From positions 12,518,299-12,582,298 of the forward strand of contig NC_049980.1 of assembly GCF_000003815.2 (NCBI RefSeq): 64,000 nucleotides of DNA. Direction: 5' to 3'. The position numbers were made by a program, and so were the translations under genes. The DNA comes from Branchiostoma floridae. Lineage: Eukaryota; Chordata; Leptocardii; Amphioxiformes; Branchiostomatidae. Under the pieces are notes generated by a model that saw nothing but the letters and a program-made list of their open reading frames with translations, made no database searches and had not been told where the DNA came from. Shown in pieces: positions 3,148 to 53,800 of this stretch (within the stretch, counting starts at the first letter, position 1; each line of letters begins with the position of its first letter).

Positions 3148-3840
3148 CCGTTCCTGGACCGAATGACCTGAAATTTGGCACAGGGGTAGAATGGGCCAAT
3201 ACCTTGATGCTTTTTTCTCAGTTTTTTTCATATCTGCCTCTAAAGTGATTTTATTGAGATTTTTTGGTCAATTTTAGACCAAAACTGTATATTTTGGCCC
3301 CTGTACCCTGGTATTACAACCAAATGATCTGAAATTTGACAGAGATGTGCCTTGATAATGCCCCCATATAAATTCGCTAACACTTTTGGTGTACAGTACA
3401 ACGAAATGCTTATTTTTGCGATTTTTTGACCAATTTTTGACCAAAAAAGGACACTTTTGGCCCCTGTACCCTGGTATTACAACCAAATGAGCTGAAATTT
3501 GACAGAGATGTGCCCTGATAATGCCCCCATATAAATTCAATAACACTTTTGGTGTACAGTACAGCAAAATGCTTATTTTTGCGATTTTTTGACCAATTTT
3601 TGACCAAAAAAGGACACTTTTGGCTCCTGTACCTTGGTATTGCAACCGAATGAGCTGAAATTTGACACAGATGTGCCTTGATAATCCCTTCATATAAATT
3701 CAATAACACTTTTGGTGTACAGTGCAACAAAATGCTTATTTTTGCGATTTTTGGCCAATTTTTGACCAAAAAAGGACACTTTTGGCTCCTGTACCCTGGT
3801 ATTACAATTAAATGACCTGAAATTTGGTATAGATAGGCAT
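3148..3840. repeat. Tandem array of a 163-bp unit, about four copies
   Basis: The marker CTGTACCCTGGTATT begins at 3301, 3464, 3627 (one substitution) and 3789, giving spacings of 163, 163 and 162 bp. Each unit also carries GACCAATTTTTGACCAAAA and a run ending GGACACTTTTGGC. Copies 1-3 are close to one another. A diverged partial copy lies to the left (about 3148-3300), and the fourth grades into the following larger duplication. The long minus-strand frames here simply follow the repeat period and are not genes. Confidence 0.85.
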
Positions 3841-7294: not shown

Positions 7295-10200
7295 ATGAGC
7301 TCAAACAGCTGCCATTTAACGTGGAAATCCTTGCAACAGTACGCACAGGACACTAAGAAACTCGAGTTGGACTTGCCACACATCGAAGAACATTACAATG
7401 AGACACTCACCTTTCTCACAATGCGTTATGGCAACCTCAGAGGCTTTATGCTCTTCAACTTGGATCAGTCTAGAGAAGCCGAGAAGTCGTTTAGAAAAGT
7501 CTTAGAAGTTGATCCCAGCAACTTGAACGCCATAGGAAATCTAGTAGTTCTGTATGAAGAACAGTTCATGTATGCAAAAGCTCGGGAGATGCATGCAAAA
7601 CTGAAAGCGTTACTGAAAGAAGGTGGAAACAATGGTGAGGCGAGACAAGCAAGGGCCACCGCAGAGCAGGTAAGTTGAATAACCTTTGAGGTAAGGTTTC
7701 GCAGAGAATGATGAGAATGTAATTTTTATAGGCTTATATGTGCTTATAGGGGTCCTTAACTTACGTTTGAATGTCCCACACTAACAGTGAGAGAAGAAAC
7801 AAAGTGATACGCAGAGATAATTTTCGTTCAACAAAAAACGAATGCAATCTGTACTTGTTGAACGCTATACACACTAATACAAATATTTAGATTTTAGTTC
7901 ATGAGTTACTTAATGGGTCATTAAGGGTTAAGGCACAACTAAGATTTGACTAATCTATAACCAAGAATTCATGCGGACAGTTGCATGCATGTCTAAGATT
8001 TCAATTTTATGCATAACTAAGATTTTTTTTTAATTTATCCGTACGTAAGACTTTAATGCTATGCTTACCAAAAATCTAATCCCATGTCTTTCTTTTTGTT
8101 TCTTATTTCATTTGATGCATACCTGGGATATATACGAACTTTGAGCCTGCACGAGAACTTTTTTTCGTGTTCTAGTCTCTCGTCGGATAGATGTTAATTT
8201 AGAACGAAATGATGACGCACACCAAAGCATGACCATCAAAAAACTGTTTTAGTTGTCTGGCGATTTACTGTCCCAATCTCTGAGAAATGAAAACAAGCAC
8301 GCACGCAAAACAGTTCAAATGGTTTATCATTCATAACGAATAACCTTATCACTCTCATTGATGAGCATGAGGCCATTCTATTCCATAAGATGAAATAAAA
8401 TTATCTTGCTCATCAATATCACTCCATAAAATGAAATGGAATTATCATGGTCATCAATGATGGTGATAAGGTTATTCGTTATAATGAACCATTTGAACTG
8501 TTTTGCGTGCGTGCTTGTTTTCAATGAGCCCTGCGAACATCAAAAATTGATAATTATCATCATCATCATCATAGTAAACAATAACTCACTCACTAACTCT
8601 GTCAAAAAACAACATAACAGTGACTAGAATTTATAATAGCAAGGGTACTCGTCAATAGATAAACCCGGAATTCTGTATCATCCACAATGGTGTAAACAGG
8701 TTGTCTGTCGTAGGTTTTCATAAAATCTTCGATAGACATAGATAATCTTAAGCATAACAACATTAGATAGGTATGCGCATAATTAAAATCATAATCAAAA
8801 TACATGTTAAACTGAAATCTCAGGTCTGCATAGAATCACTCCTTGTTATGGATTTAAACTCTTTTCTATGCCTAAATGCAAACCATTAATGAACTAAAAT
8901 CTCACATAGATTTGAATACATTTGTATCTCATTAAGCTTTCTGGTAGTTTACTACTCTCCTGTTTATATTCTATAGCTCGCGGATTAACTCCTTTTTAGA
9001 ATATTGGCTAGGCAATTGTAGTTAGAGGGACGATATCAATGCCGTTATGACCATAAAAGTTTAATTCTCTCCCTAATTATGTAGCAAGCTTTGTGGTATT
9101 TTCTCTTTCTCGTGGCAGGCCTTCGCTATCCAATGGTTTGAACAAGACAAACGTGATTTCGGACATCTCGCGTATTTCGAGGAGGCAGCTCGGCGGTCCG
9201 AGTACGCGCTTCCAGAGGAGAGGCTGGCGTGGAAGTTCCAGTGCGGTCTGGCCGTCTACAGGCTCTACCTGCAGTTCTTACAGGCAAAGGCAACAGAAGA
9301 GAACATCTTATTCACACGATGTAAGGCTTTGGCATACTTCAACGATGCCATACAGGTGTACGAGAAACACAGACCCGATAACTCCAGGGACGCGGCGCTA
9401 TGCTGGGTCTTCATCGGCATCATTGTTCTGGACACGGAAGAGTCGGAAAGACATGACCTTTTCAACAGTAGTCAAGTTGCAGAGACCACGCCAAAGGAAT
9501 GCTTCGACACAGCGCTGAGCTTGAGTAGGACGCCGTATGTGGTAAGAAGGATAGGGGAGCAGCTTGGAAGACCTGAAATGAAGGAGTACGCCAGGGCATT
9601 GGAGATGTTGGACGAAGCGCTTGAGCAAAACCCCAGACGGTGCGGGTGGTTCTGCCACGATAGAAAGGGTATCATTTATTTGCAAATGTTCAAACATAAA
9701 ACATCGTTGGAAGGACATTCACCAGACACCATGCTGCAAGAATCTCTAAAGAACTTTAGAAAGGCAGTGCAATTTAAGAAAACTTACACCGACTTCGACT
9801 GTATTGGACAGATTCAATTGGAACTTGGTGACTACCAGTCAGCCATTGCTGCATTCCGACAAGCTGTGAATCATGGGATTGACGATCGGTGTGACCCAGG
9901 TTTGACACACAGGTAGTCTACTTCAGTTTGATTGATCTTAGTTTGGACTCAAGTCCGGTCTTTTCTGGTCTGTTTATGTGGACAGTATCTATGCACCATG
10001 TATACATATGTCTAAGCTTTGTGCTAGCATCAAGTCTCCCATTGCTGAACACGCTAGTATTTTAAAACATTTCAAATAGCTTTGTGAAAATGTGTGATAT
10101 CCGCTAAGGACTGTTGTATACTTTTACAAATGTGGTCAAATCCACTGACAAATCCTTTGGAAGAAAGATATTTACCATTTTACAGCTTCACAAACCAGTA

Positions 10201-12100
10201 CCTGAGGAGAAATGAAAGGTGCTTTATATATTGCATATTGGTTACCTGAAATGTGCTTAACAGATATGTTGTACACAATTGCTATGGCACAGAAAATAGA
10301 CCAACATTTGAGGACCGAATAATGACATTGAAGGAACGACAAAAGAGCATGTTTACCGTGGCTCAAGCTTTACATCTGACATATCGTTTCAGATTGTGGG
10401 CCAAGTGCTTGGAAGAGTTAGATGAATTTGAAGGCGCAGAGGAGCAGCATTTCACAGCCAGGATTGTGGAGCAGAAACTTGCCCAGTCAATGCCCGGTCA
10501 GCCTATCCCAGGGCTCGATACTCTCAGGCCACTATCAGCATTCCGGCAGGTCAGTCCGTCAGATAAACTACTTGTTTTTTGTGCATTTTGGACATATATA
10601 CTAGAAAATTAAGCAGGTCTTGACAAGTGATTGTTTTAACGTGAGGGAACTTCATCCTTTCACACATTACCCACAATGCAACTCGATACACATGCGAGAT
10701 CTAATATGTGAACCAGCTTATTCTGGACAACACATGATGCCATCTGAAACATTTCATCTATTTCAGGTGGAGAAGCCCAGAAACAAACAGGGCTACAAGT
10801 ACGACTTCTTCGTGTCATATTCCAGTAAGGACGACGACTGGGTGGTGGGAGTTCTGGTCAAGACTTTGGAGGAGAAACACGGGTTCAAAGGCCTTGTACA
10901 TGACAGGGACTTCCAGGTATGGTATCAACTCTGCTTTCATAATGACAATAAAGCTACCATAGCTATAAGATACGATGGCTTGATCCTGATATATCTACGC
11001 TTCTAGACATCCTAGCAATGGTGGGCCGCGTAGAAGATTGATGGCCAGAGCAACCAGACCACGATCGTACGCAGCGCTGTGAAGAAGCCATGAGCCTATA
11101 GATCGTGGGCTTACATTGCCACGTAGAGCTAAACAAAATAAACTCGCTACAATTCACAGTTGTCACGTTAGTTGTGTGCGCGCGCAAGTTTATTTTAGGG
11201 GATAAAATATTGTCACACTGACTTCATAATGATAAATAATCCTGAGCTTCTATTTCTGTTCTTTCTTTATAAATCAGTCTCAGACAACAAAGTCTGCAGG
11301 GAGACTCGCTACAGAGCCCCGGGCAGCGAGAGCTTGTTTTATCCACTGTGCCGAAATGTTGTAACACGCTATGCTTTGTTTGGTATATGTATATGCATGA
11401 ATACAACCACTTTGTATAGACATATTAATGGCATGGAGTCTAAAGGAATACAGAAAGTTGAAGCAATGTTGTATGATGTAGACAAAATGTGTAACCATAA
11501 CATAAATCACTTGCAGGTTGGAAAATCTATAATTGACAATATCTCCTACGGGATCGACCAAAGTTTCAAAACCATACTGGTCCTGAGTGAAAACTTCCTC
11601 CGAAGCAACTGGTGCAGGTGGGATGCTTTCTTGTACTGTCCCAGTTGGTTTATTGGACGATAGTAACGTTATATCACGAAATTGATCTAACAGTCTTATG
11701 GTTTGAATTCTGTCAACTGGGCATGTGCAGTGAAATGTATTGTGGGTATGATGTCGAAGTTGAAGGCCCTGGAGACACAAAGAAAAGTTGTCTACATGTT
11801 AGGGGTCTTCGTCTTTTGCATTACCCACAATGCATCTTACTGCGCATGTTGTTATTTGCATATAGAAGACACCCCATGACATGGCGAAATTTCCACATTC
11901 CCAGGTACGAGATGCAGCAAGTCCATCTACGGGCCATGAAGGGTCGCGGGGATCACGTGATCGCCATCCTGTACAAGCCGTGCGAGGTACCTGACGACAT
12001 CGCACACCTGACGTACCTGCCGTGTAAGACTGACGGTCAGCTGGGTCCTGATGGCTGGAGGAGACTGGAAGATGCTCTCACTGATTCTGATGAGAGATAA
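7295..12100 (+). CDS. IFIT-like TPR protein with C-terminal TIR domain (complete, six coding exons, 590 aa)
   Basis: Coding exons are 7295-7669, 9119-9912, 10393-10549, 10767-10916, 11517-11617 and 11905-12100. Every junction has GT/AG and all phases agree, giving 1773 nt including the stop. Residues 1-~430 are helical TPR-type repeats. The N-terminus has CHLTW near residue 6 and a first repeat of the form ..EAEKSFRKVLEVDPSN, resembling the start of vertebrate IFIT proteins; a later segment (exon 2) with RKGIIYLQM, an insert, and SLKNFRKAV..K..Y resembles the IFIT C-terminal TPRs. Residues 452-~585 are a TIR domain: box 1 YDFFVSYSS (454-462), box 2 RDFQVG (489-494), KTILVLSENF (510-519), WCRYE (524-528). 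In TLRs the BB loop carries Pro where Val493 stands here. There is no signal peptide or membrane segment, so a cytosolic protein is expected. The likely role is an immune adaptor or sensor (inference). The TIR call is near certain; the IFIT affinity is moderate, and a generic TPR array is the alternative. Confidence 0.85.
8289..8522. mobile_element. Inverted-repeat (MITE-like) element in intron 1 of the TPR-TIR gene
   Basis: The left arm 8289-8352 and right arm 8463-8522 are inverted copies of about 60 bp with few mismatches (key motifs GCACGCACGCAAAACAG and AACGAATAACCTTATCAC), separated by about 110 bp. The core again contains partly self-complementary CATCAAT and ATGAAAT motifs. No coding capacity. 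No clear target-site duplication was seen. Confidence 0.75.
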
Positions 12101-12232: not shown

Positions 12233-12238
12233 AATAAA
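12233..12238 (+). promoter_or_regulatory. Poly(A) signal of the TPR-TIR gene
   Basis: AATAAA lies 133 bp after the TPR-TIR stop codon in AT-rich sequence. It is the first canonical hexamer downstream. Confidence 0.6.
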
Positions 12239-12606: not shown

Positions 12607-12918
12607 NNNNNNNNNNNNNNNNNNNNNNNNNNNNNNNNNNNNNNNNNNNNNNNNNNNNNNNNNNNNNNNNNNNNNNNNNNNNNNNNNNNNNNNNNNNNNN
12701 NNNNNNNNNNNNNNNNNNNNNNNNNNNNNNNNNNNNNNNNNNNNNNNNNNNNNNNNNNNNNNNNNNNNNNNNNNNNNNNNNNNNNNNNNNNNNNNNNNNN
12801 NNNNNNNNNNNNNNNNNNNNNNNNNNNNNNNNNNNNNNNNNNNNNNNNNNNNNNNNNNNNNNNNNNNNNNNNNNNNNNNNNNNNNNNNNNNNNNNNNNNN
12901 NNNNNNNNNNNNNNNNNN
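12607..12918. other. Assembly gap (312 Ns)
   Basis: A run of unknown bases. Open frames that cross it on either strand are meaningless. Confidence 0.99.
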
Positions 12919-26485: not shown

Positions 26486-26496
26486 GGTGATTCAAT

Positions 26497-28650
26497 ATGA
26501 ATGCTACTCTTCCTGATTTTAATTTTCTCACAGATGCAAGGCTATCTTGTGTTTTCACTACACCCGAAGAAGTCGAACTTTACATTAGAAGCCTGGACAC
26601 CTCTAAGGTCAATGGATACGATAACATTGACAATTATTTTCTTAAATGCATTGCACCTCTTATATCTGACAAGTTAGCTTATGTATTCAATTTATCTCTG
26701 TCATATGGAATATTCCCCATGATCTGGAAACGGGCAAACGTTGGTCCAATTCTTAAGAAAGGCGATCCGCATGATAAATGCAATTATCGTCCTGTGTCAC
26801 TACTTCCTAAGTTGTCTAAGGTCCTCGAAAAAATAGTATACAAACATATTTATAACCACCTTTTTTCAAACAACCTTATTTATCCTCTCCAGTCTGGTTT
26901 TGTACATGGTGACTCAACCGTGTGTCAGCTAGTTTATATTTCTCATACCATCCTTAAGGCTTTTGAAGAAGGGAAGGAAGTTTGCTCCATTTTTCTTGAT
27001 TTTTCGAGGGCCTTTGACTAGGTATGGCATTCTGGTTTGATATTTGAACTTCAGCAATATGGAATTGATGGTCCCTTGTTAAATTGGATTTACAGCTATT
27101 TATGTGAGAGATCTCAAAGAGTCATTGTAGACGGCCAGTCTTCTCCATGGTCTAAGATTGGCGCAGGGGTCCCTCAAGGTTCCGTGTTAGGCCCCTTACT
27201 GTTTATTATCTACATTGATATTGTAAACAACTTAAGTTCTTTACCCTTTTTATTCGCGGACGACAGTTCTCTGCTTGATGTTGTTGAAGATCCAACTGCA
27301 TCTGCATATCGGCTCAACTCTGATTTATCTATAATTTTGTCCTGGTCCCATAAATGCTTGATGGAATTAAATCCATCCAAAACGGAAGGCTAAAAGATCC
27401 CTTGTCAACCACCCCCTCTTTATCTTGGAACGTATGAAATTAAACGAGTTTTATTCCATAAACATATTGGAGTTATTTTAAATTCTAACTTGTCTTGGCA
27501 CAACCACATCATTCTGATGCTCGCTAAAATTTCTAAACAAGTTAATGTATTTCGTGGTCTAAAATTCAAATTAACTCGCAAAGTTTTAGAAACCCTTTAT
27601 AAATCATTTATTCGCCCTTGTCTCGAATATGCGGATGTTGTTTGGCATGGCTGTTCTGCCGAGGACTCCAATCTTATTGAACGAATTCAATATGTATGTT
27701 CTCTTATCGTATCAGGAGCGGTTAAAGGCTCATCTTACATTTCTGTTTGCCAAGAACTGGGTTGGGAGTCTCTCTTTAGCAGACGCCATATTCACCGTTT
27801 ATCTTTATTCTATAAAATAGTACATGGCCAAACACGGAGGTACCTAATAGATTTGATCCCCCCCCCCCCCGAAATTTCCCAAACTACTTCCTACAACTTA
27901 AGAAATAGGTCAAATTTTCGACTTTCGATACAATCTACTGATAGATTTGGCAAATCGTTTGTTCCTCACAGTTTGAATCTCTGGAACGATTTAGACCTTG
28001 TTGTTCGTTCTTACGTTACTCGCTATTTCGGAAATACGTCCCATTCGTCCCCCCACTACAATTGTGGCCCTCGTTACACCTGCGCTCTTCTTGTCAGGCT
28101 TCGCATCGGCACCTGTGCTCTTAATCAAAGTTTGTTCATCTCCCAGTGGCTCCTGTAGATGCGGGTGTCGATGCGAATCTGTATTACACTTTATGCTTCA
28201 TTCCCCATTATATATTCATCAAAGATCGGAATTTTTCGGCAATCTTGCAAATTTACTTGGTCATGGTGTAAACCTAAATAATATGTCAGACAATGTCAAA
28301 TTATATTTTATTCTTAGAGGTTCCGCATTGTTACCGTCTGTGTACAACTTTAAAACGATGCAACTCACACAAACTTACATTGAGGATACTAAGCGCTTCT
28401 AGCTCTACATGACTGTATCAGTCAAGTAGATATAGAAGTCCCAACTCTACTTTTGTTAATTCTCTTTTTTATATGTACTCAATTAGGCTAATTGATTCTA
28501 CTTTATATCTTGGGGTGGTTGGAAATGGCGCACAGTTATGTTGACCTAAGTTACCTAAGTTTGTATTTTGTTATGTGGCGTTATTAATATAAGTTGTTAA
28601 ACTTGAGTGCAGCGCCAAATTGTCATTCTTATGTGTTTTTGAGTAAAGAA
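26497..28650 (+). pseudogene. Broken CR1/L2-like LINE reverse transcriptase, 5' truncated
   Basis: Reverse-transcriptase segments read in order: NYRPVSLLPKLSKVLEK, LDFSRAFD, GVPQGSVLGPLLF and FADDSS (the catalytic box, usually YADD or FADD), then LEYADVVWHGC of the thumb/connection region and a C-terminal tail with LHFMLHSPLYIHQRSEF. It is broken by a TAG immediately after FSRAFD (27019-27021), a TAA near 27391 and a frame change around 28140. The 5' part with the endonuclease is missing. A 3' non-coding region runs to an A-rich end near 28650. It cannot encode an active enzyme. Confidence 0.85.
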
Positions 28651-36600: not shown

Positions 36601-38558
36601 ACGGGATTTCGCTCGTATATTTTATCGGAGTAGTACTCAGTAGTAATGACGTCATATTAAACAGGAAGTCCATTTATTTCCATTCCTCTACCATGGGGAA
36701 TTACCTATCGTGTACCCTTTTAATTCCTTAAGCTGGAGAAAAGTAGGACGCCGAATACTCTGTCCCGTTGCCATGAAAAAAATCAATAAAAGAAAAGCTT
36801 AACATGACAATCTTATCTGTAAAATTAACGTGTTGTGCTGCTATCTAATAGGAGATAGAGAACAATGACCAACTGTCTCTGATGGAAATAAAGTCTGGTG
36901 GTTAGGGTTGTAGAAATATATTTCTGTTCGAATCCTTACAAGGCCCCGATGACAATGCTGTGGCCTGGTCCTTGAGAGAGACACTTAGCCCTTATTTCCT
37001 CACGACCCAGGTGAAAATAGTTTTCAGTTCCGGTTAGGTATGTCCTGGCGGAGACGGACGTTAAGCCGGAGGTCATGTGCTTGAGACTTTAACCACATCT
37101 CGAACATGGTAAAGATCCCACTACACTCACCCGTCTTTTGCAGCTTGAACGCTTTCTACAAAACCCATGTTAAGCCTATAGACCGTTTACCGGTAACTAA
37201 TGCGGAACCAAACAAAACTGCTGCCCGGTATCAGGCATAATTTCTATCCCACCCTAACCCTAACCCTAACCCTAACCCTAACCCTAACCCTAACCCTAAC
37301 CCTAACCCTAACCCTAACCCTAACCCTAACCCTAACCCTAACCCTAACCCTAACCCTAACCCTAACCCTAGCCCTAGCCCTAGCCCTAGCCCTAGCCCTA
37401 GCCCTAGCCCTAGCGCTAATCCCGAGGCAAACAGCACCCACGGGCACTACCTAACGGAGCAAAAAGCTGGCAGAACAGAAATTTGGCCTAGCCCTCCATT
37501 GGTCGTAGACCCTGTCCTTGGTGCTGAATGTCACTCTTAACCCTATTCAGACCGGTGGCTTTTGAGGCCTGCGTCAACTTTCATCTCGCATAACGCCAGA
37601 ACGTCTTACGCTAGAGCCACTAGATTTGCTGAGTTTTCCTGAAATTTAGTTGGAAACAATCTAACGAACATTGTCAATTTTTCTTGTTGTCATGGCAACC
37701 ATTCTTTTCACGAAAATCGCTAATTTAGGTTCTAACAATGTATTTTTCGCTGATATTTTCTAACATGAATAAAACGTCATGATATTTAGAATATCTTTTA
37801 TAATTGATTGTGAATACATTATGCTAATTTGATGACGTCATCGGTCAAAATCCAAGATGGCGAACAAATTTTTTTAAAATTTTCAGATAGTCATTATTCT
37901 TGGACAATTTGGTGGTCATATGTTATAAGGCGTTTAAGAGTTATAGGAGTTAGAAGGGACGAGCCTCAAAAGACCCCTCGGTCCTGGTATGACCGAAAAA
38001 GCTCGGTCTGAATAGGGTTAACAATAAGGTATTTAGATAAAATATAATCTGCCACTAAAAGGCGTACAGCAGAAAGTTTATGTGATTTGTCACAAAATCA
38101 TCGGTCGATGATAATATTAAGCATTGCTTTGAAAGTAAATCATTAAAGGGTTGCACAATTTTCATTTCTCATTTGATATTACCATGGAATCAGTGTAATT
38201 ACGTAAACGGTGAAAGTCTAAAAGTTTATTTTTCTTCCAGATATTACTTAACCGATAAGAAAATTGACTAATAAGAATTTCTGTATATTTTCAGCTGTGT
38301 CATAACGACCACCAATGTATCTCCGGGATGGGGAGGGGAGCCTGCTGTGCCCCCAGGAACCTGATCTTCGCACCGGTCCCGGAGTGCAAGCCTGCGGGCA
38401 GGAGGGCCCAGCTCTGTCATGTCGCTTCCAACTTCCTGCCGTACCCGCTGCACCAGCCACACGGCTTCCATCGCTGTCCCTGCGGGAACGGTCTCGCCTG
38501 TGTGCCGACGAGACGGGGCAGCATCATCGGTGTGTGCAAGGACCTGAGGCAGCTGTAA
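33684..38558 (+). CDS. Prokineticin-like (AVIT-family-fold) secreted protein, 119 aa, lacking AVIT
   Basis: Exon 1 is 33684-33779 (32 codons, donor GTAAGT) and exon 2 is 38295-38558 (87 codons plus stop, acceptor TATATTTTCAG); the junction is phase 0. Exon 1 encodes a signal peptide (MVIVVLLLLALVV core) with likely cleavage after SVA. Exon 2 carries exactly ten cysteines in the order C-x5-C, then CC, C, C, CPC, C, C. Motifs include CHNDHQC, GACCAP, FHRCPCGNGLAC and GVCKDL. This matches the prokineticin cysteine pattern (C-x5-C..CC..C..C..CPC..C..C), including the CPC and the KDL-like tail. Vertebrate prokineticins bind GPCRs through an N-terminal AVITG that directly precedes the first Cys; here the residues are LGRHTT. 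Astakine-, Dkk- or colipase-like proteins are alternatives. Confidence 0.75.
34040..34265. repeat. Dispersed repeat, copy 2 (partner 31480-31690)
   Basis: Matches the copy 2.5 kb upstream across about 220 bp with moderate divergence. It carries an added short tandem run of ATCTCCTAACC. Confidence 0.6.
34890..35372. mobile_element. Inverted-repeat element, ~100-bp diverged arms
   Basis: Left arm ~34890-34985 and right arm ~35275-35372 are inverted copies. Shared motifs are AATGAGCC, GATGAAAAT/GAATGAAAAT, ATTCCTGGGAATTC and AGTGTATTC. The interior is AT-rich with GAATATTT and GAATGCC words. Non-coding. Confidence 0.6.
36888..37160 (+). mobile_element. tRNA-derived SINE-like fragment
   Basis: GGTGGTTAGGG followed 30 bp later by GTTCGAATCC resembles a degenerate A box and a good B box of a Pol III promoter. 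The body (CACTTAGCCC, TCCTCACGACCCAGGTG) is reminiscent of deuterostome SINE cores. It is not a folded tRNA gene: no acceptor stem pairs. Confidence 0.4.
37249..37415. repeat. Interstitial telomeric array (CCCTAA)n followed by (CCCTAG)n
   Basis: About 19 perfect CCCTAA units (37252-37365) are followed without interruption by about 8 CCCTAG units (37366-37413), ending in CGCTAAT. The plus strand carries the C-rich strand of the TTAGGG vertebrate/chordate-type telomere repeat. Long frames through it are artefacts. Confidence 0.95.
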
Positions 38559-49180: not shown

Positions 49181-50845
49181 TTAAACCTCTTCAGCAGCTT
49201 CAGTGACGCGTTGGGAGGCTAATACATGGTATTCTTTTGCAGGGTAATGCCTGGCTTTATACACTATATAAGCAGCTGTCATACAAAGCCAGTAGATTGT
49301 GTAAAAACAGGTCCCTATAATGAGATACGCCTGCTTTTGTCGATCGAACGGGTTACCCCATTCCTGGTAGGCCGTGTAGCCACAACCACCCAGGAGTATG
49401 GTAAACCAGATGGAGAGGGGAACAAGTGGGATGTAGTTAGCGATGATCTTCTTCCTCCCTGACGTGCCCCAGCTGGTTTTACCGATGGTACAGAGCGCAA
49501 AGAATTTACTGGGTAATAAACTGGTGAAATACAAGAGCGAATAGATGGACATAAACAACATGATGGGTCTACGGGAGAGGGCAAAAGCATAGATACTCTT
49601 AACGATACCGATCACCTGGATGATGTGGAGCAGGAGGAGGATGTTCCAAATCTTCCCTCTGTAGACCAGCTGGAAGGTGGTGATGGTCAGGAAGACGGGA
49701 AAGAGTCCAGAGAACACGGAGTCGTAGGTCATCCACAGGGAGTGCTTGTGGAACCACAGGGCGTTGTAGAGCCACTCGCGGTAGTAGGACTTGCACCAGC
49801 GGGTCTGTTGGTTCAGCCAGCGGAGGTAGGTGGAGGGCGTCTCGGTGAGGCAGGAGGCGCGCCAGGTGAACTTGGTGCCGTAGCCCAGGCTGAGCACGCG
49901 ATTGGTCAGGTGTCGGTCGTCGCCAAAGGTGCACTTGGAGCCGCAGAAGCTCTGCTCGTACCAGTGGTCGAGCACCTGTTGGATCAGCGTGCTTCGGTAG
50001 AGTCCCAGGGGGCCGCTGATGCACGTGACGCAGTTGAAGAAGGACTGGGAAGCGCGCTCCACGTTGAAGGCCATCCAGTACCGTAAGCTACTCAGGAACG
50101 AAATCAAAGAGTCCATCTTGTTTAGAATTCTGACATCCCCCACGGCGGCGCCAACATCCTCGTATTTGTCGAGGATCTTAGCCATTTCCATGGCACACAT
50201 GGGGTCCAGAATGGTATCCGAGTCGCAGACTTGGACGTAGTCCACGGTGTCCCCTAGTGCCTTGAAACCTGTGTACAAAGCCTCCCTCTTTCCTCCCCAC
50301 TCTTGTAGAATGCAGCTGTATTGGTGCGACCGCACCATGTTTACTAGCTGCTCGGTCGGGTCCGCTGAAACTTCCTCAATGCTGTCCGATTGAAACGTGT
50401 GGAAATTGTGCTGCCAGAAAAACGTCGCCGTGTTTTCCTTTCCCATGATGTCCACGAAAATGTCTTTCATGTAGAAATCTTCGTCCCTGTTTCCGTCCAC
50501 GACCATGACGATCTTCATCTTGGGATATTTCAATGTCTTAGCTGAGATAAGGCAGTGACGCATCAGTTCGGGATCTTCCTGGTATGCTGCTATGACCAGA
50601 CCGATGACCCGGTCGCTTTCCTCCAGGTCTTCCTCGGTAGAGATGCGATAATGTTCTATCAAGGCCGCCACGCTTTGGATAATCAGGTGCACGCACATGA
50701 CGGCGCCGTACAGGCCGAACGCGAAGTAGCTGTCCTCGGAGGCGATGAAGCTGTAGCCTGTAGAGTAGACGGCTACCATGCCGACGAGGACGGCGATGAG
50801 GAACGTCCCCGTCAGCGCAATACGGGCTGGTCTCCACGAGCACAT
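49181..50845 (-). CDS. HAS: Hyaluronan synthase, single coding exon, 554 aa
   Basis: Membrane glycosyltransferase (GT2) that polymerises hyaluronan from UDP-GlcA and UDP-GlcNAc at the inner plasma-membrane face and extrudes it. The protein begins MCSWRPARIALTG, has two N-terminal membrane segments (about 9-30 and 41-63), then the catalytic domain: AAYQEDP (86-92), VVDGN (115-119), CDSDT (207-211), ISGPLG (276-281), GDDRHLTNR (308-316) and QQTRW (346-350). Four or more C-terminal membrane helices follow, with SWGTSGRK at 458-465. Length and motif order match vertebrate HAS (about 550 aa). The start is the ATG at 50845; CTTCGCAG directly upstream looks like a splice acceptor, so a non-coding 5' exon is likely. 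The whole coding region is in one exon, unlike multi-exon vertebrate genes. Chitin synthase is excluded by size and the HAS-type sequence. Whether it corresponds to HAS1, 2 or 3 cannot be told. Confidence 0.97.
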   Translation of the reverse strand: MCSWRPARIALTGTFLIAVLVGMVAVYSTGYSFIASEDSYFAFGLYGAVMCVHLIIQSVAALIEHYRISTEEDLEESDRVIGLVIAAYQEDPELMRHCLISAKTLKYPKMKIVMVVDGNRDEDFYMKDIFVDIMGKENTATFFWQHNFHTFQSDSIEEVSADPTEQLVNMVRSHQYSCILQEWGGKREALYTGFKALGDTVDYVQVCDSDTILDPMCAMEMAKILDKYEDVGAAVGDVRILNKMDSLISFLSSLRYWMAFNVERASQSFFNCVTCISGPLGLYRSTLIQQVLDHWYEQSFCGSKCTFGDDRHLTNRVLSLGYGTKFTWRASCLTETPSTYLRWLNQQTRWCKSYYREWLYNALWFHKHSLWMTYDSVFSGLFPVFLTITTFQLVYRGKIWNILLLLHIIQVIGIVKSIYAFALSRRPIMLFMSIYSLLYFTSLLPSKFFALCTIGKTSWGTSGRKKIIANYIPLVPLSIWFTILLGGCGYTAYQEWGNPFDRQKQAYLIIGTCFYTIYWLCMTAAYIVYKARHYPAKEYHVLASQRVTEAAEEV

Positions 50846-53800
50846 ACCTGCGAAGTGCAAAAGTAGGGATTAGAGGCGGAAAGAGAGTGATCAGCACTCC
50901 GTCAGCCCCTTTATGAACTGACGTCGGTGTAGCAGACGGCACTCAGGCAGTTCGGGGTGATTTGTTGGGGCACCCAAGCCTTACTGTAAGTAGCCCCCAC
51001 CCGTTGGCTTGTTCCTGTACCCCTGTGTCACTGTATGTTTCTATTCGCCACGTTGAACGTCGGTGAGTTAAAAGGACCCCACCGATAGTTTAACCTTGGA
51101 GTAGACCAACGGGTCAACTTCCATCCGACTGAAATATGAAGTTCAGGCGCTAGACAGAGAATAATTTTGTCAGCAGTAACACTGACGTGATTGCGTTTCC
51201 AGAAGAGCAGAAGGGGGAGTAGAAGTGTTATCGGATTTTCACCAATTTGTTATCAGCTGTGGGCATGGAGTAGTTAGTAGCGAGGTGGCAGACCTTGGCC
51301 CGATAAGGAGAGACAGGGTTGCCTTGGCGTTGACAGAAACATGCCAACACGTGAGGATCATTGCTGCTATGAATCCATCATTTCTGTGAACTTAACAGAC
51401 GTAAAGTTCTGGTGAAAAGCAGGTTTGGTTTCTGGTCCAAACAGGTTCGAGAAAGTCGTATTTCTCTCTCGCTCTCCCCGCGAGATAAGTCGTTACCGTA
51501 TTCGGTGTCACCTCACCAAGGTCAAACCGACACAGTACTTCATACTGGCGCAAGTCATGTTTATCCGCTTGGGTCGGATACCAGGGTGTTTCTGGTGTTG
51601 TTAACAACGCCAACAAGGTTATATTTTTTTCAGGAAATGAAAGCTTTACAGCTGTCAAACTATCTTTTTCCCGGGCCCTTTTTTTTCCCCTAGTACACTT
51701 CACTTGAGATTACAAGTGAGCCAATAGTCAGACAGACACGTGCGATTCTGTACGACCACCGGGAGACTTTCGTTTCTGCTTGTCTTCAGCTTTGCAACAA
51801 ACAGGCGTTGAATGTATAAAAAGCCTAACAGTATGTACATCGGTTTATGGTCCACGGAACACCTTTACACACGCTGATCAGTGCACATCTATATGAAAGA
51901 ATGTAGGTTCCTACCCAGAACGAGTATAATCCTGCTAAGAACCCCTCCCCCTTATACACACTAACAGGTCGACCAAGGACGGGTTTGTTGAAAGCCGTGC
52001 GACGTGCCCTGCCTGATTGCCAGATTTAAAGTCTCTGTGATACATCAATCAATCTGTCTCCATGCTACCCGATAGCTAACAGAGGTCTGAAAGTTGAAAT
52101 CCCAGACATGGCTTTGACATTTAAGAAATCTCTCCAGATATGATGGCCTTGTGTGACTTATCTTGCTTCCATCTGCCATTTTTCGGATCGATTTTATTCC
52201 AAATCAATTTGACGTATGTGCGACTATATTCCAACAAAAATCAATTGTTCTAAATTCGGTATTATTCACATTCATTACCCACTGCCTCCAAAGATGACTT
52301 CCCAAGTGGAGTACGTAGAATAACAGATACATGTAGATCTATTGGCATTTAAAAAACTTACATTATTGTACGGTTGTGCTCGTTTTCAATTAGCCTTCGA
52401 ACATGAGGTTGCAAAAAAAAGTAAGTCTTTGAAAAGAGTGATGGAAGCAACATGCATCTGCTATAGTGTAACTATTAACTCATTACACGTGCTTTCAACA
52501 TGTGATATGGATAATACCCGTTCTTACAAATGGAAACTGTCAGGCTACATCTGCTGGCGTTTAAAATCTTTTTATATATTTTCGACCTTTGTATGAACCT
52601 CTTATTCAATGCGTCTGCGTCCCTTAACTTGGAGTCTTTCCCGCATCTCTTGCACTGCGCCGTGCCATGTACATGTACCAGCCGACATGGTAACAGTTTT
52701 CCTGACAGCCTAAATATATCCAAATGCCCCTATTTGAGCATAAGAAAGTTATCCATATCTAAACAGATATATAACTACAATGTACATGTTTTGTTCATTA
52801 ATTTTTCCATTACCATCTACTGTTTATAATTTTTCTACCTTCATGATCAGCACCTCTGGCATGCTTTTGCGTGACAATTCTATTCTGCAAATCAAATTCA
52901 TTACTTCACAACTTGTGAATCTTGTCAAGTTTGTACATAAAGTCAGGGAAAACTGCAACATTGGCAATTTTGTAATGTCAAAAAGAAACTGCGACTATCA
53001 TTTGAACAATACACTCAACATGTTGTCAATTAGAGCTCCGACCTCCCATGAACTTCCAGACTTCAAAAAACAAGATTTTTGCATGTGCTGAAGTAACACT
53101 TCCCTATGCCCATCATCACCTTGCCCTCTCCACTTCCCTCTGTACTCTCTCTACATGATACTTGGACCCAGGCCCGACGTACAATTAACGGCAATTGGCA
53201 ATTGGACCTCCCCGATGTTCAAATAGACACATCTGTTACATATCACTTACGGTAGTTAATGGCAGTAGCCTGATACAGGCTAACGCAAGGACATAGGGTT
53301 TAAAGTGCTTATCGGCTAAAATTTATACCATAAGCTTGTCAGCTTTTCACTTTTAAGTTATATTTAGACGGTGTTATGTAGCTAAATTTGATAAACATTC
53401 ATCATCATTCCCCCAAACAGTGCTTTGTTGTCAACATGTGAGACCAAGGGCATTATAGGTAGATGTAGGTGAGACTGATTTCTGCAGTTTAAGTTTGCTC
53501 TCTCTTGTGATGTTGACTCAACGATATAATTAAGAACATTAAAAGTAAGTAAAACAATCGCTACGGCTTTCATAGCGTTATTCTTGTGCGATAATTACCC
53601 ATGTCTGTGGCATCATCGCGAGAGGTAACGTACGTCTGCTGACAACGGGACACAACGGGACTCCGCGTGACATCCGGGAACTTTCATCATGATTCAGCCA
53701 TCATAGGTCTCATGATATTCAGATATGATTCCTCTCGCCATCATATTTCCTTTTCTTAAATCACTCCCATACTTAAATTTATCCTATGATTTTGACATGA

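What the first reader, a model, noticed from the sequence alone, without database searches (positions are those of the whole stretch)
7295..12100. IFIT-like TPR array fused to a TLR-like TIR domain in one cytosolic protein
Six exons splice in consistent phase into 590 aa. The N-terminus has CHLTW and TPR spacing like vertebrate IFIT proteins, which bind foreign RNA but carry no signalling domain. The C-terminus is a TIR with KTILVLSENF and WCRYE. A single protein joining an RNA-sensor-type scaffold to a TIR would be a different way of wiring antiviral recognition to signalling. The fusion is seen in sequence; the IFIT relation is by family pattern; the function is inference.
Basis: partly seen in the sequence, partly recalled or inferred. 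Interest (0 to 1): 0.75.

Follow-up and report, generated by a model that had tools for sequence, protein, structure and literature searches.

The report
TPR–TIR fusion gene, TTC22/IFIT-like scaffold
This stretch of an animal genome holds an intact six-exon gene that joins a helical repeat scaffold, most like vertebrate TTC22 and more distantly the antiviral RNA-binder IFIT5, to a Toll-receptor-type signalling domain, probably a shuffled immune adaptor of a general kind already known in invertebrates.

Summary
In detail: six exons at 7295-12100 (+) splice in phase into 633 aa (not 590). Eight of ten splice sites rank 1-20; the exon 2/3 junction is weak. The C-terminus is a TIR of TLR2/1/6/10 type (TLR2 E 7.5e-24; MyD88 only 0.003), with valine for the BB-loop proline and no transmembrane stretch.

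The IFIT reading is half right. No IFIT is among the 49 PDB hits at E<=1. TTC22 (sequence recalled, unverified) scores best: BLAST 5e-10, 0 of 1000 block shuffles. IFIT5 also matches in order from the shared CHxTW motif (0 of 1000), IFIT1 weakly (20 of 1000), IFIT2 and IFIT3 not, four ordinary TPR proteins not. Four of 16 tabulated IFIT5 RNA-pocket residues are kept (R186, Y250, R253, F337), K150 and Q41 not. So it is not an IFIT, but a scaffold of TTC22/IFIT type fused to a TIR.

TIR-TPR proteins are reported in oyster, and 20 of 28 amphioxus TIR combinations are called specific to it, hence: new variant of a known kind. Expression, paralogues and species could not be tested.

The parts
7295..7669 (+). 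exon 1: start codon, CHLTW motif, first TPRs (aa 1-125)
8288..8523 (.). foldback (nested inverted repeats of 43 and 38 nt) inside intron 1; not part of the protein
9119..9912 (+). exon 2: TPR scaffold, TTC22/IFIT5-like (aa 126-390)
10264..10549 (+). exon 3: TPR-like hairpin by a home-made motif score, and linker (aa 390-485); not significantly like TTC22
10767..10916 (+). exon 4: TIR box 1 (YDFFVSYS) to the BB loop (aa 486-535)
11517..11617 (+). exon 5: BB loop (Q|VGKS, valine where TLR2 has proline) to WCR (aa 536-569)
11905..12100 (+). exon 6: end of TIR (YE..., GW in place of box 3 FW) and stop
12233..12238 (+). AATAAA poly-A signal

Best explanation
An intact gene for a cytosolic TIR adaptor or receptor made by domain shuffling. 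A TPR super-helix of the TTC22 lineage (with IFIT as a more distant cousin sharing the N-terminal CHxTW cap) is joined to a TLR-type TIR domain. Shown: the open spliced frame, the domain order, the TLR-type TIR, and the ordered similarity to TTC22 (recalled letters) and IFIT5. Inferred: the TPR groove binds a partner (protein or RNA), which clusters the protein so that its TIR nucleates or blocks a TIR-TIR assembly with Toll receptors or other TIR adaptors. With valine in the BB loop the partner choice probably differs from that of the classical MyD88-recruiting TLR2.
For: Gene model and splice ranks. TIR matches TLR2 7.5e-24, TLR1 2.9e-19, TLR6 1.9e-18, TLR10 8.8e-18, far above MyD88 0.0029. 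49 of 102 columns are identical to TLR2 TIR letters. TTC22 BLASTP 5e-10 over 47-379. Order test: TTC22 0/1000, IFIT5 0/1000, IFIT1 20/1000 against controls STIP1 28/300, OGT 135/300, DNAJC3 278/1000, GPSM2 424/1000. TTC22 and the query are split from four IFITs with ultrafast bootstrap 100 (six sequences, no other TPR family included, very long branches). No hydrophobic stretch: maximum 19-residue mean 1.14.
Against: TTC22 letters were recalled and could not be checked. By identity of aligned positions TTC22 is not ahead: 83 of 314 against 95 of 337 for IFIT5, and 0.202 against 0.236 in the six-sequence alignment. TTC22 and IFIT5 are not significantly alike in order (22 of 300 shuffles reach; TTC22-IFIT1 3 of 300). 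Exon 3 shows no match to the TTC22 C-terminus (174 of 500). There is no transcript evidence. The structure prediction of exon 2 was uninformative (pLDDT 42.4).
Confidence: 0.6

Rival explanations
1. A true IFIT-type RNA sensor: the TPR barrel binds 5'-triphosphate or cap0 RNA and the TIR signals.
For: CHxTW start; collinear with IFIT5 over aa 6-398 (95 of 337 aligned positions identical; 0/1000). R186->R173, Y250->Y265, R253->R268 and F337->F344 kept; PMC9677429 ranks K150, R253, R186 as the three strongest electrostatic contacts (passages).
Against: 12 of 16 aligned IFIT5 pocket residues differ, including K150, Q41, T37, Y254 and Q288; of the four IFIT1 phosphate contacts R38 and K151 are not kept, R187 and R255 are. 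IFIT2 and IFIT3 show no ordered match (284/300, 151/300). IFIT four-sequence profile only 14.4 bits, E 0.076, and 9 of 120 block shuffles reach its hhalign score. TTC22 scores better.
Confidence: 0.12
2. Two neighbouring genes: a TPR gene ending after exon 3 and a TIR-only gene beginning at or before exon 4.
For: ATGs at 10692, 10734 and 10737 in intron 3 are in frame with exon 4 (positions) and the frame is open through them.
Against: Exon 3 donor ranks 6 of 342 and exon 4 acceptor 3 of 362; phase 0 join; intron of 217 nt without a poly-A signal.
Confidence: 0.08
3. A TIR enzyme (NAD hydrolase or cyclase) gated by the TPR domain, as in SARM1 or bacterial TIR effectors.
For: The Glu of WCRYE is present. 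Models of bacterial defence proteins match over the TIR: PADLOC PDC-S66 2.5e-17, ThsB 1e-10; NCBIfam retron TIR 6.7e-9, below its cut-off; PDB AbTIR NAD hydrolase 1.1e-7. SARM1 catalytic-Glu placement is recalled.
Against: Closest TIRs in PDB are TLR2/1/6/10; TLR2 also carries this Glu and is not known as an NADase (recalled). SARM1 is not among the 60 of 68 hits shown.
Confidence: 0.12
4. Decoy or negative regulator: the TIR lacks the BB-loop proline and box 3 FW and so dampens Toll signalling.
For: RDFQVGKS against TLR2 RDFIPGKW; GW near the C-terminus.
Against: TLR3 also lacks the proline and signals (recalled); no functional data.
Confidence: 0.15

Closest known systems
TTC22 (vertebrate tetratricopeptide repeat protein 22)
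   Same: Best-scoring ordered match, residues 47-379 (BLASTP 5e-10, 82 of 365 columns identical; 0 of 1000 block shuffles)
   Different: TTC22 as recalled has no TIR; the N-terminal cap and exon 3 do not match significantly; its sequence could not be verified here
IFIT5/IFIT1
   Same: CHxTW cap, collinear TPR order, R186/Y250/R253 equivalents
   Different: IFITs have no TIR (recalled); 12 of 16 aligned IFIT5 pocket residues differ; lower scores than TTC22; IFITs reported only from jawed vertebrates (PMC3688568, passages)
TLR1/2/6/10 TIR domains
   Same: 49 of 102 columns identical to TLR2; boxes 1 and 2 recognisable
   Different: No LRR ectodomain or transmembrane segment; P->V in the BB loop; box 3 FW is GW
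TIR-TPR proteins of the Pacific oyster
   Same: Same two domain types in one protein (PMC4346834, figure legend and other passages seen)
   Different: Sequences, order and TPR family of the oyster proteins not seen
Bacterial group 6 TIR-TPR proteins
   Same: TIR plus many TPRs (PMC7075850, passage)
   Different: Opposite order (TIR first); bacterial TIR group
Amphioxus shuffled TIR proteins
   Same: 20 of 28 TIR domain combinations called amphioxus-specific (PMC2575513, passages)
   Different: The held text has 0 occurrences of TPR or tetratricopeptide; its supplementary lists were not read

Membership tests
IFIT | Significant sequence match to IFIT family | tested here: inconclusive
   phmmer 0.013 (IFIT5), 0.12 (IFIT1), IFIT2 not reported; ordered match IFIT5 0/1000, IFIT1 20/1000, IFIT2 284/300, IFIT3 151/300
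IFIT | Closer to IFIT than to other TPR families | tested here: not met
   TTC22 scores higher in BLASTP and phmmer, SW and hhalign; plain identity of aligned positions is slightly higher for IFIT5
IFIT | Triphosphate/cap RNA pocket | tested here: not met
   4 of 16 aligned residues of the PMC9677429 table kept (R186, Y250, R253, F337); alignment near K150 is uncertain; K415 and K426 lie outside it; D334 not looked at
IFIT | N-terminal CHFTW cap | tested here: met
   CHLTW at aa 6
IFIT | Interferon induction / ISRE promoter | not tested
   no expression data; promoter motif not searched
TTC22 | Collinear match along the TPR region | tested here: met
   aa 47-379, 0/1000 block shuffles; TTC22 letters recalled
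TTC22 | Orthology | not testable with these tools
   no eukaryotic genome collection to search; the genome search unanswered
TLR-type TIR | TIR with box 1 and box 2 | tested here: met
   TLR2 7.5e-24; Pfam TIR_2 1.4e-18
TLR-type TIR | BB-loop proline | tested here: not met
   V in RDFQVGKS
Toll-like receptor | LRR ectodomain and transmembrane helix | tested here: not met
   no LRR among the 20 Pfam families listed; max KD19 1.14
MyD88 adaptor | Death domain plus TIR | tested here: not met
   no death domain among the 20 Pfam families listed; MyD88 TIR only 0.0029
TIR NAD hydrolase | Catalytic activity | not testable with these tools
   Glu present; activity needs a bench assay

The most novel reading that the evidence does not exclude
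An invertebrate member of a TTC22/IFIT super-lineage, older than jawed vertebrates, that already worked in immunity by carrying its own TIR domain. IFITs would then be later, signalling-less descendants or cousins of a scaffold once wired directly to Toll-type signalling, possibly with phosphate-binding arginines already in place.
Probability: 0.2. Interest if true: 0.75.

Novelty: new variant of a known kind. Interest (0 to 1): 0.45.

Why it matters
IFITs are described as appearing with jawed vertebrates and interferon (PMC3688568, passages). An invertebrate TPR protein with ordered IFIT5- and TTC22-like sequence and its own TIR would give a testable ancestor-like state, and would make TTC22, whose function I know of no account for (recalled), a candidate immune scaffold.

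Tried and rejected
Generic TPR resemblance as the whole explanation: rejected, because ordered similarity to TTC22 and IFIT5 exceeded 1000 of 1000 block shuffles while STIP1, OGT, DNAJC3 and GPSM2 did not stand out. Straight IFIT membership: rejected. Prokaryotic or viral relatives: scans of viral and genome contigs with exon 2, a method that reaches close relatives only, confirmed none (2 and 21 pattern stretches). Structure: exon 2 alone, no alignment, pLDDT 42.4, so no fold search was made. Rfam at gathering scores and ARAGORN found nothing in the window. Literature, all ten searches: no title or abstract start in the listings concerned an IFIT- or TTC22-TIR fusion; one search listed 30 of 380 papers, so that one was only sampled. 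The oyster and Aplysia papers carry the term TIR-TPR, but in the Aplysia passages I saw it only in the abbreviation list. The Genome Research 2008 amphioxus immune repertoire paper is not held. Passages of further papers gave no TIR-TPR protein of lancelets.

Full report
Observation. The spliced frame was rebuilt by script: six exons, 633 aa, all introns GT-AG, junction phases 0,2,0,0,2, stop codon at 12098-12100. In the local ranking donors stand at 1, 24, 6, 7, 5 of 342 and acceptors at 1, 74, 3, 20, 2 of 362; the exon 2 donor and the exon 3 acceptor are weak, so the exon 2/3 joint is the least certain part. Exons are richer in GC (0.43-0.56) than introns (0.366). Of five poly-A-like signals, two lie in intron 1, two in intron 4, none in the 217-nt intron between the TPR and TIR parts, and one follows the stop. 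tblastn at E<=1 found no second copy in the window.

TIR. Pfam TIR_2 1.4e-18 at 499-612. Against solved structures: TLR2 7.5e-24, TLR1 2.9e-19, TLR6 1.9e-18, Toll-receptor-related 2 6.5e-18, TLR10 8.8e-18; MyD88 comes at 0.0029 (60 of 68 rows shown). 49 of 102 aligned columns equal TLR2. The BB loop reads RDFQVGKS where TLR2 has RDFIPGKW, so the proline is a valine; the exon 4/5 junction falls exactly there. Near the C-terminus the W stands in DGW, so box 3 FW is not kept. No hydrophobic segment reaches 1.2 on the 19-residue scale, so the protein looks cytosolic.

Order test. TPR proteins resemble each other in pieces, so the query was cut into 12-15 blocks and permuted; only similarity in the right order should survive this. 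Reaching the real score: TTC22 0 of 300 and 0 of 1000; IFIT5 0 of 300 (highest 136 against 137) and 0 of 1000 (highest 128); IFIT1 13 of 300 and 20 of 1000; IFIT2 284 of 300; IFIT3 151 of 300; STIP1 28 of 300; OGT 135 of 300; DNAJC3 278 of 1000; GPSM2 424 of 1000. By hhalign, TTC22 0 of 120 and the IFIT profile 9 of 120. The IFIT5 path runs from CHxTW (query 6, IFIT5 18) to 398/383 with 95 of 337 identities; dropping the first 45 residues lowers the score from 137 to 101 and leaves TTC22 at 170. Against the reading: identity of aligned positions is no higher for TTC22 (83 of 314; 0.202 against 0.236 for IFIT5 in the joint alignment); TTC22 and IFIT5 themselves show no clear ordered similarity (22 of 300), TTC22 and IFIT1 some (3 of 300). 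In a six-sequence tree without other TPR families TTC22 and the query split from the IFITs with ultrafast bootstrap 100, on very long branches. Exon 3 does not match the TTC22 C-terminus (174 of 500).

RNA pocket. PMC9677429 (passages) tabulates IFIT5 pocket mutants and names K150, R253 and R186 as the strongest electrostatic contacts. Of 16 tabulated residues that fall in the alignment, R186, Y250, R253 and F337 are kept; the other 12 differ, e.g. T37->H, Q41->T, K150->D, Y254->R, H287->D, Q288->R. For IFIT1 (PMC13197388, passage) the phosphate contacts R187 and R255 are kept, R38->H, K151 falls in a gap. So the full pocket is absent, and RNA binding stays open rather than supported.

Known context. 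PMC3688568 (passages) found IFITs only in jawed vertebrates and set aside three amphioxus TPR proteins that hit at E<1e-6 as not IFITs; whether ours is one of them is unknown. PMC2575513 (passages) reports 28 TIR domain combinations in amphioxus, 20 specific to it. PMC4346834 (legend) has a TIR-TPR class in oyster. PMC7075850 (passages) describes bacterial TIR proteins with C-terminal TPRs. PMC8195603 (passages) reports TTC28-like TPRs fused to TRADD-N domains in animals, another TPR-immune adaptor fusion. PMC12373286 (passage) reports TIR PF13676 over-represented among dispensable lancelet genes, so presence/absence variation is plausible for this gene.

Limits. No eukaryotic genome collection, no transcripts, and six unanswered requests for the window's own genome. 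Structure prediction of exon 2 was uninformative.

Noticed in passing
window 49184-50869 (-): Single open frame of a hyaluronan synthase: PDB Hyaluronan synthase 1 (8smm) E 3.3e-180.
   Followed up: partly
window 26491-27390 (+): Two adjoining frames with reverse transcriptase (RVT_1 3.4e-10 and 2.5e-11), separated by a stop; looks like a decayed LINE-type element.
   Followed up: no
window 37251-37412: 27 copies of ACCCTA, i.e. a TTAGGG-type array on the other strand: interstitial telomere-like repeat.
   Followed up: no
window 8288-8523: Nested inverted repeats (43 nt 95%, 38 nt 92%) in intron 1, like a foldback or MITE insertion.
   Followed up: no
window 3254-3826: 163-nt tandem repeat, 3.5 copies, 91% matches.
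   Followed up: no
window 12607-12918: Assembly gap of 312 N just downstream of the gene.
   Followed up: no
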